DNA of 6,383 nucleotides from Deltaproteobacteria bacterium (GTDB lineage Bacteria > Desulfobacterota > Desulfobacteria > Desulfobacterales > Desulfobacteraceae), in the NCBI GenBank assembly GCA_003647385.1, contig QMMT01000133.1:1-6383 (forward strand), given 5' to 3'. The notes under the pieces were generated by a model. It did no database searches, had not been told where the DNA came from, and saw only the letters and a program-made list of their open reading frames with translations. Positions 1,807 through 6,244 of this stretch are shown here, piece by piece (position 1 is the stretch's first letter; the number at the start of each line of letters is the position of its first letter). The position numbers and the translations under genes were made by a program.

Positions 1807-1858
1807 AGTTGAATGATTTTATAACCTGAAGGTCACACGTTAAAACAAGGAGATGGCT

Positions 1859-3157
1859 TTGAAAAGATTAATTGAAAATAAACTTCTGGATTGGAAAAGC
1901 TCAAGAAGAAGAAAGCCGCTTATTTTAAGAGGAGCACGACAAATTGGTAAAACCTGGATAATTCAAAATTTTGGTGATAGATACTATAAAAATATCGTCA
2001 CAATTGACTTTGAGAAAGAAAGAGACTTTCACTCTTTCTTTGAAAAATCTCTTGATCCCATGGTTATAAAACAATCAATCGAAATAATAAAAAAAACCAA
2101 AATAGTACCTGAAGAAACGCTTCTATTCTTTGATGAAATACAAAGTTGCCCGAGAGCAATAACCGCGTTGAGATATTTTTATGAAGAAATGAATGAAATT
2201 CATGTTATTGCCGCAGGATCATTGCTGGAATTCGCCCTTTCTGAGATTTCCTTTCCAGTTGGAAGAGTTCAATATCTAAATATGTATCCAATGACATTTG
2301 CAGAATACCTTATGGCTACTGAAAATGAAACAGCATTGGAGATTATAAACTCAGGGCCTGAAAAATTACCAGAACAAATACATGATTCAATGCTCAGTGA
2401 ACTTAGAACATATTTTTTTATCGGGGGGATGCCTGAAAGTATAAAAGTATTTATTGAAAGTGGTAGCATTTCTGATTCATTTGATGTTCATAAAGAGCTT
2501 ATCACAACATTTCAGGATGATTTTTCAAAGTATGCACCATATGCTGATAAACACTGTTTGAATGACGTATTTAAAAACGTGGCGAAGAATATTGGCAATC
2601 AGATAAAATATACTCATCTTTCCGAATCGTTTTCTTCTCCAACAATTAAAAAAGCGTTTGAGACCTTATTAAATGCCAAAATAATAAAAAAGATACCTTC
2701 ATTAAGTAACATTACGCCCCCTTTTAATTTGAATATTTCTTTAAAAAAATTTAAAACGCTGCTTTTAGATATTGGGTTATGGCAGCATCTGAGTGGAATG
2801 TCAGATTATCTGGAGCTAACAAAATCAGATCTCTCAAATACATACAGAGGTGCTTTAGCAGAACAATTTGTCGGACAGGAATTAATTTGTGCGAATGATG
2901 GAGACATTTGCTACTGGGCTAGAGACAAAAAAGGAAGTAGTGCTGAAATTGACTACCTTGTTACCTTTGAAAGCAAACCATATCCAATTGAGGTAAAAAG
3001 CGGGAAAGCCGGTTCCTTAAAAAGTATGCATATGATTCTAAAAAATTATCCTGATTGCCCTTCAGGGATAGTATTTTCAACCCGGCATTTTGAAAAATTA
3101 GAGGCGCAACGGCTAATTTTTTTGCCATTATACTATGCTGGCGGAATTATTCATTAG
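1859..3157 (+). CDS. AAA ATPase, AAA_14/DUF4143 family
   Basis: Predicted P-loop ATPase of the widespread AAA_14 + DUF4143 type; its cellular role is not established. Counted from the in-frame ATG at 1853, the Walker A motif GARQIGKT is at residues 27-34, Walker B TLLFFDE at 89-95, and a sensor-like AGSLLE at 121-126. The family-typical FPVGRVQYLNMYPMTF follows at 134-149. The C-terminal half has a PD-(D/E)XK-like set: Glu337 in AEQF, Asp367 in EIDYLV, and IEVKSG at 379-384. I prefer TTG 1859 as start: AAGGAG (1847-1852) touches the ATG at 1853 with no spacer but lies 6 bases before the TTG, and the protein would then begin MKRLIENKLLDWK, as relatives do; it is 432 residues that way and 434 from the ATG. 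The gene is AT-richer than both flanks (one sampled 60-base stretch is about 32% GC, against about 55% in hgcA), suggesting separate acquisition. It shows no functional link to hgcAB. Confidence 0.9.
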   Translation: MKRLIENKLLDWKSSRRRKPLILRGARQIGKTWIIQNFGDRYYKNIVTIDFEKERDFHSFFEKSLDPMVIKQSIEIIKKTKIVPEETLLFFDEIQSCPRAITALRYFYEEMNEIHVIAAGSLLEFALSEISFPVGRVQYLNMYPMTFAEYLMATENETALEIINSGPEKLPEQIHDSMLSELRTYFFIGGMPESIKVFIESGSISDSFDVHKELITTFQDDFSKYAPYADKHCLNDVFKNVAKNIGNQIKYTHLSESFSSPTIKKAFETLLNAKIIKKIPSLSNITPPFNLNISLKKFKTLLLDIGLWQHLSGMSDYLELTKSDLSNTYRGALAEQFVGQELICANDGDICYWARDKKGSSAEIDYLVTFESKPYPIEVKSGKAGSLKSMHMILKNYPDCPSGIVFSTRHFEKLEAQRLIFLPLYYAGGIIH

Positions 3158-3245: not shown

Positions 3246-3581
3246 TTGAAAGCAGCAGTGATCCAGCCAAAACCCACAGTAAAGAGAAAAATGAATACAG
3301 AACAGCTTGCAAAAATATTTAAAGCCCTGGGACATCCGACACGGATAAAAATCGTTGAGCACCTTATTGATATCAACACCTGCGTGTGCGGAGAAATTGT
3401 CGATATCTTTCCCTATTCCCAATCTACCATCAGTCAACATTTGAAACTGTTAAAAGAATCCGGGATTGTCTGTGGAGAAGTCGAAGGCCCAAAAACTTAT
3501 TTCTGCGTGGATAAAACGGTTTTAAATGAATTCAAACAATATATCCAGAGTTTTTATAAGGACGAGAAAACAAATGGATAA
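3246..3581 (+). CDS. arsR: ArsR/SmtB-family metal-sensing repressor of the hgcAB operon
   Basis: Predicted dimeric winged-helix DNA-binding protein of 111 residues, normal for the family, that leaves its operator when it binds a thiophilic metal or metalloid. Family features: KIFKALGHPTRIKIVEHL (23-40), TCVCGEIVDIF (45-55) with Cys46 and Cys48 where ArsR-type sensors carry the ELCVC metal site, and the recognition helix SQSTISQHLKLLKESG (58-73). Two more cysteines, Cys76 and Cys87, lie in the wing region and could complete a three- or four-thiolate site. TTG 3246 is chosen because GGGAG (3235-3239) sits 6 bases upstream; the ATG at 3291 has a weaker site and would cut into the first helix. 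The gene ends overlapping the start region of hgcA, so the two are almost certainly cotranscribed. ArsR-like regulators next to hgcAB are known in other methylators (from memory). Whether Hg, As or another effector is sensed cannot be read from sequence. Confidence 0.93.
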   Translation: MKAAVIQPKPTVKRKMNTEQLAKIFKALGHPTRIKIVEHLIDINTCVCGEIVDIFPYSQSTISQHLKLLKESGIVCGEVEGPKTYFCVDKTVLNEFKQYIQSFYKDEKTNG

Positions 3582-4719
3582 AATATCAAGCTCCGGAGTT
3601 AATATCATGTCCTCCATGGATGAGATCGCAGCGCCGTGCACGACTGAACTTTTTGATCCCATGACAGATTATGAAAACCCTGGCTATAAACTGTGTTCCT
3701 ATGTGGACAGGTTTATAGAAACCGATACGGGCCGTATTCCCATCATCAAGTCAAACTTAGGAAAAGATGACCTTTTTTCAACCTTTTACGTCAGATGCGG
3801 CATCACCCGGCATAAATATACAGTGGCGCCCGGACTCTATGGTATCGGAAATCCGGATAAAAACAGTGAAGTGCTTGTAACAGCAAACTTTAAATTAACG
3901 TTTGATCATCTAAGAAACAAGTTGGCTGATATTAACGCATGGATTCTGGTACTGGATACAAAAGGAGTTAATGTCTGGTGCGCTGCAGGAAAGGGAACCT
4001 TTTCAACCCGGGAACTTGTAAAAAAAATTAAAGACTGCTCCCTTGAAAAAATTGTAGATCATAAACGGGTCATTGTTCCACAGTTAGGCGCAACCGGGGT
4101 GTCGGCAAGAGACGTTAAAAAACAGGCTGGATTCAGGGTGGTATACGGTCCGATCCGGGCAGAGGATATCCCGTCCTTTCTAAAAAACAGCCGAAAAGCA
4201 GACAAAAAGATGAGGCAGGTCACCTTTAATCTGTATGAACGCTTCATTCTGACACCTGTTGAGATTCAAATCGTGCTGAAACCGGCTTTGATTACAGCAC
4301 TTGTTCTGCTGATTATTTCAGGCTTTGGGCCAGGTATTTTTTCTTTTTCTGCGGTCTGGGAAAGAGGCATTATTTCAATTTTTGCCCTTGCAGCGGGGAT
4401 ATTTTCCGGTGCCTTTATTACCCCGACTCTGCTGCCCTTTATCCCAACACGTGAATTTGCCCTCAAAGGTATCATTTCCGGCAGTATTTTCGCCACACTC
4501 CTCATGATTGCCATGTCATCCGCCATTAGCGGCCCGGCAGGATTTACGGCACTGTTTTTGTTCAGTGTGACCATCAGCTCTTTTCTGGCCATGAACTTTA
4601 CAGGTACCACACCATTTACTTCCCCCTCAGGGGTTGAAAAAGAAATGAAACGATACATTCCTGTGCAGCTCGTTGCCCTGGTTATCTCAACCGGGCTATG
4701 GATATACTCTGCATTTTGA
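3574..4719 (+). CDS. hgcA: Mercury methylation corrinoid protein HgcA
   Basis: HgcA carries the methyl group on a corrinoid cofactor and transfers it to Hg(II). The diagnostic cap-helix motif NVWCAAGKGTF is present at bases 3970-4002; its Cys (codon 3979-3981) is the proposed lower ligand of cobalt. The cytoplasmic corrinoid domain comes first, followed by about five membrane helices. Numbered from ATG 3607 they lie near residues 226-241, 254-277, 287-306, 311-330 and 351-369. Two starts compete. ATG 3574 overlaps arsR by 8 bases and has AAGGA 11 bases upstream (381 residues, Cys136). ATG 3607 has CGGAG 8 bases upstream (370 residues, Cys125). Either gives an N-terminus some 30-40 residues longer than in ND132 HgcA (Cys93, from memory). 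The soluble corrinoid iron-sulfur protein of the acetyl-CoA pathway is the related family, but it lacks these membrane helices. hgcB starts 23 bases after the stop. Confidence 0.96.
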   Translation: MDKISSSGVNIMSSMDEIAAPCTTELFDPMTDYENPGYKLCSYVDRFIETDTGRIPIIKSNLGKDDLFSTFYVRCGITRHKYTVAPGLYGIGNPDKNSEVLVTANFKLTFDHLRNKLADINAWILVLDTKGVNVWCAAGKGTFSTRELVKKIKDCSLEKIVDHKRVIVPQLGATGVSARDVKKQAGFRVVYGPIRAEDIPSFLKNSRKADKKMRQVTFNLYERFILTPVEIQIVLKPALITALVLLIISGFGPGIFSFSAVWERGIISIFALAAGIFSGAFITPTLLPFIPTREFALKGIISGSIFATLLMIAMSSAISGPAGFTALFLFSVTISSFLAMNFTGTTPFTSPSGVEKEMKRYIPVQLVALVISTGLWIYSAF

Positions 4720-4742
4720 GCCAAAACTTAAAGGATTTAACC

Positions 4743-5033
4743 ATGGAAAATTTAAGATATTTAGATGATGTATCAACCCTGGTACTTGATGAAGAAAAAT
4801 GTATCGGCTGCAGCCTGTGTACCGAAGTCTGTCCCCAGGCAGTTTTTGAAATGAGACAGAGCAAGGCCCATATCGTTGATTTCAATGCCTGTATGGAATG
4901 TGGCGCCTGTGTTAATAACTGCCCCTCCCAGGCGATATCCGTCAGCCCGGGTGTGGGCTGAGCCGCCTATATTATCCAGGTCTGGATAAAGGGGAAAGAG
5001 AATGCATCCTGTGGCGATGGCGGCTGCTGTTAA
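4743..5033 (+). CDS. hgcB: Ferredoxin HgcB, read as a selenoprotein through TGA codon 73
   Basis: HgcB is the 2[4Fe-4S] ferredoxin partner of HgcA, thought to reduce the corrinoid and handle Hg(II). ATG 4743 is preceded by AAGGA (4731-4735) at 7 bases. Two CxxCxxCxxxC clusters are present: Cys20, 23, 26, 30 and Cys50, 53, 56, 60. The frame then meets TGA (4959-4961) at codon 73. If TGA ended the protein it would have only 72 residues and no C-terminal thiols. Read through, it continues AAYIIQVWIKGKENASC, then GDGGCC, to TAA 5031-5033: 96 residues with Cys90, Cys95 and Cys96. ND132 HgcB has essential Cys73 and a functional Cys94/Cys95 pair at its end (from memory), so the TGA sits exactly at the Cys73 position. 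With the hairpin at 4972-4989 this points to selenocysteine. A nonsense mutation or sequencing error is the alternative. A standard gene caller would end it at 4961. Its end overlaps the convergent cdaA gene by 4 bases. Confidence 0.92.
4959..4961 (+). other. Probable selenocysteine codon (TGA) in hgcB
   Basis: In-frame TGA between SPGVG and AAYIIQVW, at residue 73, the place of the conserved essential Cys of HgcB. Coding sense continues beyond it to a CC terminus and a proper TAA. A Cys/Sec exchange at a functional thiol followed at once by a SECIS-like hairpin is the usual pattern of bacterial selenoproteins. Confidence 0.85.
4972..4989 (+). promoter_or_regulatory. Bacterial SECIS-like hairpin in hgcB mRNA
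   Basis: TTATCC (4972-4977) pairs perfectly with GGATAA (4984-4989) around the loop AGGTCT (4978-4983). The stretch CAGGTCTG is identical to the top of the E. coli fdhF SECIS as I remember it, where the GGUCU part is recognised by SelB. The loop begins 17 bases after the TGA (18 in fdhF by my count). CCT (4966-4968) and AGG (4990-4992) could extend the stem below a 3-base ATA bulge on the 5' side. No T-run follows, so it is not a terminator. Confidence 0.83.
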
Positions 5034-6244
5034 ATAGGTTCTTTTTCTATTGAAGATTTGTCCTCTTGATTCGATTTCAGTCTTCTTTCAAGTGTCAGTT
5101 CCATCTTTGACGGCGTGATATGTACCACATGAATCCTGTCATTGGGCAGTGTTAAATTCCCTGTAGTAATCGTGTAAAATGATGTGCCGGATTTTGCTGA
5201 AAACAAATCAATAGACGTTATGACATTATTTTCATTCAGCAGGCTGACATCTTTCCTAAGCCCTCGGCAGGTGATAGAAATTTTTTGATCAACCGGCTCA
5301 GATATCATGAGTTCCGACGGGATATTTTTGAAGGTGAGCGGCAAATTAATTTTCTTTTCAAAATTCTGCTGCCCGGCAAAAACCAGCCACATAATAAAAA
5401 CCAGGCTAAAAACAGCTGCTTTGATTTTATATCGCCTGGTAAACAAGGATGTTATCTTTTCTTTAATCGTTGTATCGGTCTTTTTGAACTCAAGGACTGC
5501 TTCCCCAAGAAAGACTGACAACTCTTTTTCATCTTTGACTTTTCTGATTTCATTATCAACAGCAAAAGAGACTTCCCCTCTTTCCTCTGAAATAATCATT
5601 ACCCAGGCATCGCATTGCTCTGTCAGGCCAAGAGATGCTCTATGCCGGGTCCCCCACGCCTGGGGCAGATCTTCCCTTGTGGACAGGGGCAGATAACAGG
5701 ATGTTTTTAAAATTTTACCATTGGAAATAAGAGCGGCCCCATCGTGCAGAGGAGATTCTTTATAAAAAATTGAATTCAATATTTCAGGCTGGGGATCGCA
5801 TTCCATGGCAATCCCTTTGGTAATCAAATCAAACACCAGATCTGTTCTTTCAAAAACAATAACCGCACCGATTCTTTTTTTTGCCGCATCAAAGGCCCAG
5901 TTGGCAAATGCCGGGACCCATCCATCAGCTGTAGAACCCCGCTTAAGCCCAATGGTTCTTAAAGGATTGAATCGTTCAAGCATCTGCCTGATTTCTTTTT
6001 GAAACAAAATAATCAAAAGGATAACAAAGACCTGCCACAAAATCTGGAACACCCAGGTCGTCAAAAAAAGTCCCCAGGATTTTGCCACAATGAAAATTCC
6101 GCTTAGAACAACAATACCGATCAGGGCCTTAAACGCTTTGGTTCCCCAAAACCAGATATAAAGTTGATAGGATATGAACGAAATAAAAGCTATATCAAGG
6201 ATATCCGGCAATCCGATATTTGACAATATGGCAAACAGATTCAT
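5030..6244 (-). CDS. cdaA: Diadenylate cyclase CdaA with C-terminal YbbR/CdaR-like domain
   Basis: Membrane enzyme predicted to make cyclic di-AMP from two ATP. Three membrane helices (about residues 15-32, 38-58, 62-82) precede a DisA_N/DAC domain (about 85-255). That domain has the catalytic signatures SPLHDGAALI (DGA at 168-170) and GTRHRASLGLTE (RHR at 200-202), so the enzyme looks active. A fourth membrane segment (about 275-291) leads into a ~100-residue beta-rich region (about 295-390, LPLTFKNIPSELMIS...) resembling one YbbR repeat. Typical CdaA is about 270 residues, with YbbR (CdaR) encoded by the next gene; here both parts are in one 404-residue chain, placing the YbbR part outside the membrane. 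ATG at 6244-6242 has AAAGG (6251-6255) 6 bases upstream. The gene converges on hgcB, and the two stop regions overlap at 5030-5033. The YbbR assignment is less certain than the cyclase. Confidence 0.93.
   Translation of the reverse strand: MNLFAILSNIGLPDILDIAFISFISYQLYIWFWGTKAFKALIGIVVLSGIFIVAKSWGLFLTTWVFQILWQVFVILLIILFQKEIRQMLERFNPLRTIGLKRGSTADGWVPAFANWAFDAAKKRIGAVIVFERTDLVFDLITKGIAMECDPQPEILNSIFYKESPLHDGAALISNGKILKTSCYLPLSTREDLPQAWGTRHRASLGLTEQCDAWVMIISEERGEVSFAVDNEIRKVKDEKELSVFLGEAVLEFKKTDTTIKEKITSLFTRRYKIKAAVFSLVFIMWLVFAGQQNFEKKINLPLTFKNIPSELMISEPVDQKISITCRGLRKDVSLLNENNVITSIDLFSAKSGTSFYTITTGNLTLPNDRIHVVHITPSKMELTLERRLKSNQEDKSSIEKEPI

What the first reader, a model, noticed from the sequence alone, without database searches (positions are those of the whole stretch)
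4743..5033. HgcB appears to be a selenoprotein: TGA at the essential Cys73 position
Seen: the hgcB frame meets TGA at codon 73 and stays open and HgcB-like for 23 more codons to a TAA, ending in the CC pair expected of HgcB. Known (from memory): in ND132 HgcB, Cys73 and at least one of the terminal cysteines are required for Hg methylation, and Hg(II) binds selenolates even more tightly than thiolates. Inferred: selenocysteine replaces the key thiol, which could alter Hg(II) capture, redox behaviour or transfer to the methyl-corrinoid. It would also make methylation depend on selenium supply. A standard annotation would give a truncated 72-residue ferredoxin without the Hg-handling tail, so such genes could be missed or mis-scored in methylator surveys. 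I do not recall a described selenocysteine HgcB but cannot check the literature.
Basis: partly seen in the sequence, partly recalled or inferred. Interest (0 to 1): 0.97.

Follow-up and report, generated by a model that had tools for sequence, protein, structure and literature searches.

The report
Selenium version of mercury-methylation protein HgcB
In this relative of Desulfobacula, the gene for the mercury-methylation ferredoxin HgcB carries a TGA codon exactly where its relatives encode an essential cysteine, and it is predicted to insert selenocysteine there; selenium HgcB is already listed in a 2026 review, but all 55 HgcB genes found in the sampled genomes of this bacterial family have the TGA, so methylmercury formation by this group would likely depend on selenium.

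Summary
Frame 4743-5033 is HgcB (NF040864: 126 bits read through, 103 cut at the TGA), beside hgcA, with TGA at codon 73. All 55 HgcB genes found in 86 genomes of its family have TGA there; in other families the loci read mostly have Cys. After the TGA, a 7-bp hairpin with a G-rich loop occurs in 60 of 60 distinct TGA stretches and 2 of 119 distinct Cys stretches. Its synonymous sites are frozen (pS 0.10; 0.72 in codons 20-72, 0.78 in 83-91), while the tail keeps its protein sequence (pN 0.04). The genome has SelA and three formate dehydrogenases with TGA at the selenocysteine site, but the incomplete assembly gave no selB, selD or tRNA-Sec. Selenoprotein HgcB is not new: a 2026 review lists it (GVGU), citing Haft and Gwadz 2023, which I could not read.

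The parts
4743..5033 (+). hgcB, read through the TGA (96 residues, predicted Sec at 73)
   Evidence: NF040864 126.2 bits, residues 5-96
4959..4961 (+). TGA at codon 73, predicted selenocysteine codon
   Evidence: aligned with Cys in homologues
4972..4989 (+). predicted SECIS upper stem-loop, UUAUCCA-GGUC-UGGAUAA (loop 4979-4982, 17 nt after the UGA)
   Evidence: 7 bp in 60 of 60 distinct TGA stretches, 2 of 119 distinct Cys stretches; synonymous sites frozen
4962..5030 (+). C-terminal extension after the TGA with conserved KGKENASCG and terminal CC
   Evidence: pN 0.042, pS 0.784 for codons 83-91
4731..4735 (+). AAGGA, likely ribosome-binding site of hgcB
   Evidence: sequence
3574..4719 (+). 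hgcA, corrinoid protein; keeps Cys in NVWCAAGK; ends with an ordinary TGA stop (4717-4719)
   Evidence: NF040863 424.8 bits
3246..3581 (+). ArsR/SmtB-type regulator directly upstream, overlapping hgcA by 8 bases
   Evidence: NF033788 71.3 bits

Best explanation
This is an hgcAB mercury-methylation operon in which codon 73 of hgcB is TGA and is predicted to be decoded as selenocysteine, likely directed by the RNA hairpin that starts 10 nt after it. SelB with tRNA-Sec would bind the GGUC-loop hairpin and insert Sec at UGA; reading then continues through the 23-codon tail to the terminal Cys pair. In the protein, the selenolate at position 73 would take the place of the thiolate that mercury methylation needs, probably as the ligand that exchanges Hg(II) or methyl-Hg with the terminal cysteines near the HgcA corrinoid. 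Shown: TGA at the Cys73 column, its conservation in the sampled family, the hairpin sequence, codon freezing, protein-level selection on the tail, Sec-type genes in the genome. Inferred: actual Sec insertion, hairpin function, and the role of the selenolate in mercury transfer.
For: Profile match through the TGA. 55 of 55 family HgcB loci have GVGU. Hairpin in 60 of 60 distinct TGA stretches against 2 of 119 distinct Cys stretches; it meets the model in PMC13188914 (3-9 nt loop, 4-16 bp stem, G in the first two loop positions, loop 16-37 nt from UGA for most; passage). Codons 77 ATT, 78 ATC, 82 ATA are 61 of 61 and 79 CAG 60 of 61, the lowest synonymous variation of all degenerate columns tabulated; pS 0.097 in codons 77-82 against 0.722 in 20-72, 0.447 in 74-76 and 0.784 in 83-91. 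42 of 62 distinct TGA genes end in a further TGA taken as stop, and hgcA here stops at TGA, so UGA is not simply reassigned. Own genome: SelA 595.9 bits; three formate dehydrogenases with TGA at ARL-U-HSSTVAGL and GGTC 18 nt after UGA. Family: SelB at E <= 1e-60 in 77 of 86 genomes, 42 of 42 of high quality; tRNA-Sec in 66 of 86, 40 of 42. Cys73Ala abolished methylation in ND132 (passage in PMC7305189).
Against: The window's own assembly (81% complete, 5% contamination, 611 contigs) gave no SelB, SelD or tRNA-Sec over cut-off, and a contaminant contig could carry the Sec-type genes found. Hairpin columns are nearly invariant, so there is no covariation; folding of the window's own 45 nt is not exceptional against shuffles (z -1.19, 26 of 200 as good); Rfam has no match. 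Two distinct Cys stretches also form the 7-bp hairpin. No protein, selenium or methylation measurement exists here.
Confidence: 0.88

Rival explanations
1. The TGA is a real stop; the cell makes a 72-residue ferredoxin without the mercury-handling tail, and the tail is a relic.
For: Gene callers stop there: 72-residue proteins are in the databases. The 72-residue piece alone still passes the HgcB cut-off (102.7 against 99).
Against: Tail codons 83-91 have pN 0.042 with pS 0.784, stronger protein conservation than codons 20-72 (pN 0.145). TGA, never TAA or TAG, at this codon in all 55 family loci.
Confidence: 0.03
2. UGA is read as an ordinary amino acid (reassigned code or leaky read-through, for instance as Cys or Trp), without selenium.
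For: The frame is open under such codes.
Against: hgcA in the window and 42 of 62 distinct TGA-hgcB genes use TGA as their stop; the hairpin with frozen synonymous sites is not needed for a reassigned code; the genome has SelA and Sec-type formate dehydrogenases.
Confidence: 0.04
3. Sequencing or assembly error, TGA for TGC or TGT.
For: Single draft assembly.
Against: Same codon in 55 genomes of the family, one of them the named Desulfocicer vacuolatum DSM 3385.
Confidence: 0.01

Closest known systems
Selenocysteine HgcB (NF040864, motif GVGU, example WP_250697400.1), listed in the review PMC13188914 with Haft and Gwadz 2023 as source
   Same: Same protein family, same motif GVGU, hence the same residue.
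   Different: The primary paper could not be read, so its taxa and hairpins are unknown to me; here the TGA is in all 55 family loci, and two different candidate hairpins were seen.
Cys-type HgcB (Pseudodesulfovibrio mercurii ND132)
   Same: Dicluster ferredoxin beside hgcA, conserved position-73 residue, terminal cysteines (PMC7305189 passages).
   Different: Cys codon instead of TGA; only 2 of 119 distinct Cys stretches can form the hairpin.
Formate dehydrogenase Sec genes (three in the same genome)
   Same: In-frame TGA followed by a hairpin with GGTC at the apical loop, 18 nt after UGA (here 17).
   Different: Different enzyme; 5-nt loop in the predicted fold instead of 4.

Membership tests
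HgcB (NF040864) | Score over curated cut-off, full length | tested here: met
   126.2 bits against 99, residues 5-96
HgcB (NF040864) | Two CxxCxxCxxxCP cluster motifs | tested here: met
   CIGCSLCTEVCP and CMECGACVNNCP
HgcB (NF040864) | Cys at the GVGx position (73), or Sec as the 2026 review lists for this family | tested here: inconclusive
   TGA at that codon; met if it is decoded as Sec, the form listed as GVGU in PMC13188914
HgcB (NF040864) | One or more C-terminal cysteines | tested here: met
   C90, C95, C96, all after the TGA
HgcB (NF040864) | Next to hgcA | tested here: met
   hgcA ends 23 nt upstream
HgcB (NF040864) | Mercury methylation activity | not testable with these tools
   none
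Bacterial selenoprotein gene | In-frame TGA aligned with a conserved Cys of homologues | tested here: met
Bacterial selenoprotein gene | SECIS hairpin right after UGA within the published model | tested here: met
   7 bp, loop GGUC, 17 nt
Bacterial selenoprotein gene | Compensatory changes in the hairpin | tested here: inconclusive
   stem is the same in all 60 distinct stretches
Bacterial selenoprotein gene | selA, selB, selC, selD in the genome | tested here: inconclusive
   SelA yes; SelB, SelD, tRNA-Sec not over cut-off in this 81% complete assembly; most family relatives have SelB and tRNA-Sec
Bacterial selenoprotein gene | Selenium or Sec peptide in the protein | not testable with these tools
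   none

The most novel reading that the evidence does not exclude
Selenium has been selected into HgcB repeatedly, always at residue 73: once in the Desulfobacteraceae-type lineage, where it is fixed and has spread to other families of the order, again in Bacillota with an unrelated SECIS hairpin elsewhere in the gene, and perhaps a third time (G236). Position 73 is then the selenium-sensitive step of mercury methylation, and methylmercury formation by Desulfobacteraceae depends on selenium supply.
Probability: 0.5. Interest if true: 0.75.

Novelty: new member of a known kind. Interest (0 to 1): 0.5.

Why it matters
Ordinary gene calling gives a 72-residue HgcB without its tail in this family, so surveys of mercury methylators that rely on it lose the mercury-handling end. 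The switch from sulfur to selenium at the residue that Hg methylation needs offers a natural test of how HgcB handles mercury, and convergent gains at one residue would say that this residue, not the clusters or the tail, is where selenium chemistry helps. The named strain Desulfocicer vacuolatum DSM 3385 carries such a gene and makes it testable.

Tried and rejected
Rfam on the window: no match. tRNA-Sec, SelB and SelD in the own genome: only sub-threshold hits; ARAGORN on the four loci of the tRNA-Sec hits gives tRNA-Ser, -Trp and -Arg in three and nothing in the fourth; the absence was then weighed against Sec-type formate dehydrogenases. Val at codon 80 as a Sec-only mark: rejected, four Cys loci (three distinct stretches) also have IIQVW. 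Covariation: none to count, stem invariant. Rows flagged with TGA that have Cys at 73: L072, L142 and L262-L264 (terminal TGA stop), L265 (TGA in the tail), G858 and G894 likewise have their TGA in the tail. First regex found 27 of 55 family loci and was replaced. In one search, two loci (L207, L223) gave no match and one gave neither U nor C; they were left out of the counts. Of 62 distinct TGA rows, one with a longer stretch between the cluster motifs was left out of the column table. HgcA trees: 24 of 211 loci gave no HgcA by the pattern used, and near-copies were thinned (187 loci to 153 rows; 176 rows).

Full report
Observation. The frame 4743-5033 starts with ATG, meets TGA at 4959-4961 (codon 73) and continues for 23 codons to TAA, ending in CC. 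Read through, it matches the NCBIfam model of HgcB over its full length with 126.2 bits; the 72-residue piece gets 102.7 (cut-off 99). Directly upstream lie hgcA (NF040863, 424.8 bits) and an ArsR-type regulator. The TGA stands at the column that is Cys in the five full-length Cys homologues of a 14-row alignment; one row has Leu and seven end just before it.

How common it is. In 86 genomes of the same family, 55 have an HgcB over the cut-off, and all 55 loci have TGA exactly at this codon, in the context GVG-U-A. Named records with TGA are titled Desulfobacula, Desulfotignum, Desulfamplus, Desulfobacterium and Desulfocicer vacuolatum DSM 3385, among others. The terminal CC is common but not universal in the family (for example L047, L064, L065). 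In the order, 168 of 389 sampled genomes, the family included, have an HgcB at E <= 1e-20. Outside the family I found TGA at codon 73 in seven genomes (eight genes, L099-L106), a lower bound because the match list was cut; the other order loci that I read have Cys, and the listed rows that I did not read show no TGA inside. In the phylum sample 116 of 395 genomes have an HgcB; five rows other than the window carried a TGA, and all five have Cys at 73 (L142, L262-L265); one row with a TAG was not read. Among the 120 listed of 1601 protein hits, 14 are exactly 72 residues long, which is what ordinary gene calling yields.

The hairpin. The 60 distinct 60-nt stretches from the TGA genes of the first three searches and the named loci all can form a 7-bp stem at the same place, with a 4-nt loop that starts with GG (59) or AG (1). 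Of 119 distinct Cys stretches, 2 can; of the 36 among them with IIQxW, 2 can. In the window the stem is UUAUCCA/UGGAUAA with loop GGUC, 17 nt after the UGA. The review PMC13188914 (passage read) gives the bacterial model as a 3-9 nt loop, a 4-16 bp upper stem, a G in the first two loop positions and, for most, a loop 16-37 nt from the UGA; this hairpin fits. Three formate dehydrogenase genes of the same genome have TGA in the context ARL-U-HSSTVAGL (the known Sec site of this enzyme, recalled) and GGTC 18 nt downstream. Against it: the stem never varies, so there is no covariation; the window's 45 nt fold only modestly better than shuffles (z -1.19, 26 of 200 as good); Rfam has no match.

Codon freezing and selection. 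In 61 distinct TGA genes, codons 77 (ATT), 78 (ATC) and 82 (ATA) never vary and codon 79 is CAG in 60; no other degenerate column tabulated is so fixed. In 74 distinct Cys homologues with the frame xxxIIxxW the first two codons are ATC/ATT/ATA 56/15/3 and 41/28/5, and ATA stands at the third in 6 of 74. Pairwise synonymous difference is 0.722 in codons 20-72, 0.447 in 74-76, 0.097 in 77-82 and 0.784 in 83-91; non-synonymous difference in 83-91 is 0.042, lower than in 20-72 (0.145). The tail is thus kept as protein, and the stretch in between is kept at the level of RNA or DNA letters as well.

UGA is not simply reassigned. hgcA of the window ends in TGA, and 42 of 62 distinct TGA-hgcB genes have a further TGA as their end, taken as the stop.

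Machinery. The own assembly is 81% complete in 611 contigs with 5% contamination. SelA is present (595.9 bits); SelB, SelD and tRNA-Sec do not reach their cut-offs. In a complete-looking relative of the same genus (G055, one contig) selB and tRNA-Sec lie about 2 Mb apart, so one missing stretch would not explain both absences. In the family, SelB was found at E <= 1e-60 in 77 of 86 genomes (42 of 42 at least 90% complete and at most 5% contaminated) and tRNA-Sec in 66 of 86 (40 of 42). Of the 55 genomes with HgcB, counted by hand from these tables, 49 show SelB, 47 tRNA-Sec and 52 at least one; the three with neither are the window's own, G065 and G079.

Origins. On an HgcA tree of 153 rows, 56 of 57 TGA rows form one clade with SH-aLRT 100 (no bootstrap); the clade includes genes from six other families of the order, so TGA was either ancestral there or moved between families. 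One row, L101 (G236), sits among Cys rows. Its hgcB front half is 74% identical to the best Cys gene and 70% to the best TGA gene, so the front half alone decides little; its tail is 94% identical in 51 nt to that of Desulfocicer (82% to the best Cys gene), partly because of the frozen codons. It may be a mosaic or a separate gain. In a sample of 398 genomes from the phylum of G777 (a Peptococcaceae record, Bacillota), 32 have an HgcB hit at E <= 1e-20 and four have TGA at codon 73 (L254, L256, L258, L259; I read 23 of the 32, and the nine unread rows list no stop). Their candidate hairpin is different: in L254 and L256 a 7-bp stem with loop AGGTA 29 nt after the UGA, which is also in the predicted fold; in L258 and L259 a 6- or 7-bp stem at 29-30 nt, which the longest-stem scan finds but the minimum-energy fold does not show. 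Two Cys genes of that sample (L242, L244) fold a weaker stem near the same place, and no chance control was run. With these rows the HgcA tree needs three changes between Sec and Cys, and its well-supported branches force three ('quick' method). I infer at least two independent gains of Sec at the same residue.

What it likely does. Cys73 of ND132 HgcB is needed: its change to Ala abolished methylation, and losing both terminal cysteines cut activity by 95% (PMC7305189, passages read). That paper proposes that the tail delivers methyl-Hg to Cys73 and that the tail cysteines may transfer Hg(II), methyl-Hg or both. With Sec at 73 the ligand is a selenolate, which binds Hg(II) more tightly and is deprotonated at neutral pH (recalled chemistry). 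My best reading is that Sec73 serves the same hand-over with a stronger, more nucleophilic ligand. This step is inference.

Literature. PMC13188914 lists 'Mercury methylation ferredoxin HgcB, NF040864, GVGU' and also HgcA among selenoproteins (passages read). [quoted passage not shown] Both cite Haft and Gwadz 2023 (J Bacteriol 205:e00259-22), which is not held. In the held library, the searches (hgcB with selenocysteine, Desulfobacula or 'truncated'; hgcA with selenoprotein and related terms) listed no paper whose title or abstract start names the family-wide distribution or the hairpins; apart from the three papers named here I opened none of those listed, and the primary paper may contain both. 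Hence 'new member of a known kind'.

Noticed in passing
L254, L256, L258, L259 (Bacillota-side genomes): HgcB with TGA at codon 73 and a different candidate SECIS hairpin 29-30 nt downstream; used as evidence of repeated gain.
   Followed up: partly
L265 (G654), frame 1530-1818 on the minus strand: HgcB with Cys at 73 but an in-frame TGA in the tail (SGAPPD-U-SDGCGDGPSSPSSCC), a possible Sec at another tail position; one genome only.
   Followed up: no
L260 (G858) and L261 (G894): HgcB-like ferredoxins below the cut-off, no HgcA pattern seen in the 2.5-kb locus, both with a TGA in the C-terminal GCG-U-D(S/T)GC; possible further selenoprotein family.
   Followed up: no
L101 (G236): TGA-hgcB that sits among Cys genes on the HgcA tree and has a Sec-type tail; possible mosaic or separate gain.
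   Followed up: partly
G061:C1:529912-531948 and G062:C1:576722-579503: A second tRNA-Sec gene beside a second selB in two genomes of one genus.
   Followed up: no
L029 (G064): TGA-hgcB without a recognisable hgcA within 1.5 kb upstream.
   Followed up: partly
P0002: A metagenome HgcB with Leu at position 73 in an otherwise Sec-type sequence; sequencing error or mutant.
   Followed up: no
window 1853-3157 and 5030-6244: AAA_14/DUF4143 ATPase upstream; a CdaA-like diadenylate cyclase on the minus strand whose end overlaps the end of hgcB by 4 bases.
   Followed up: no
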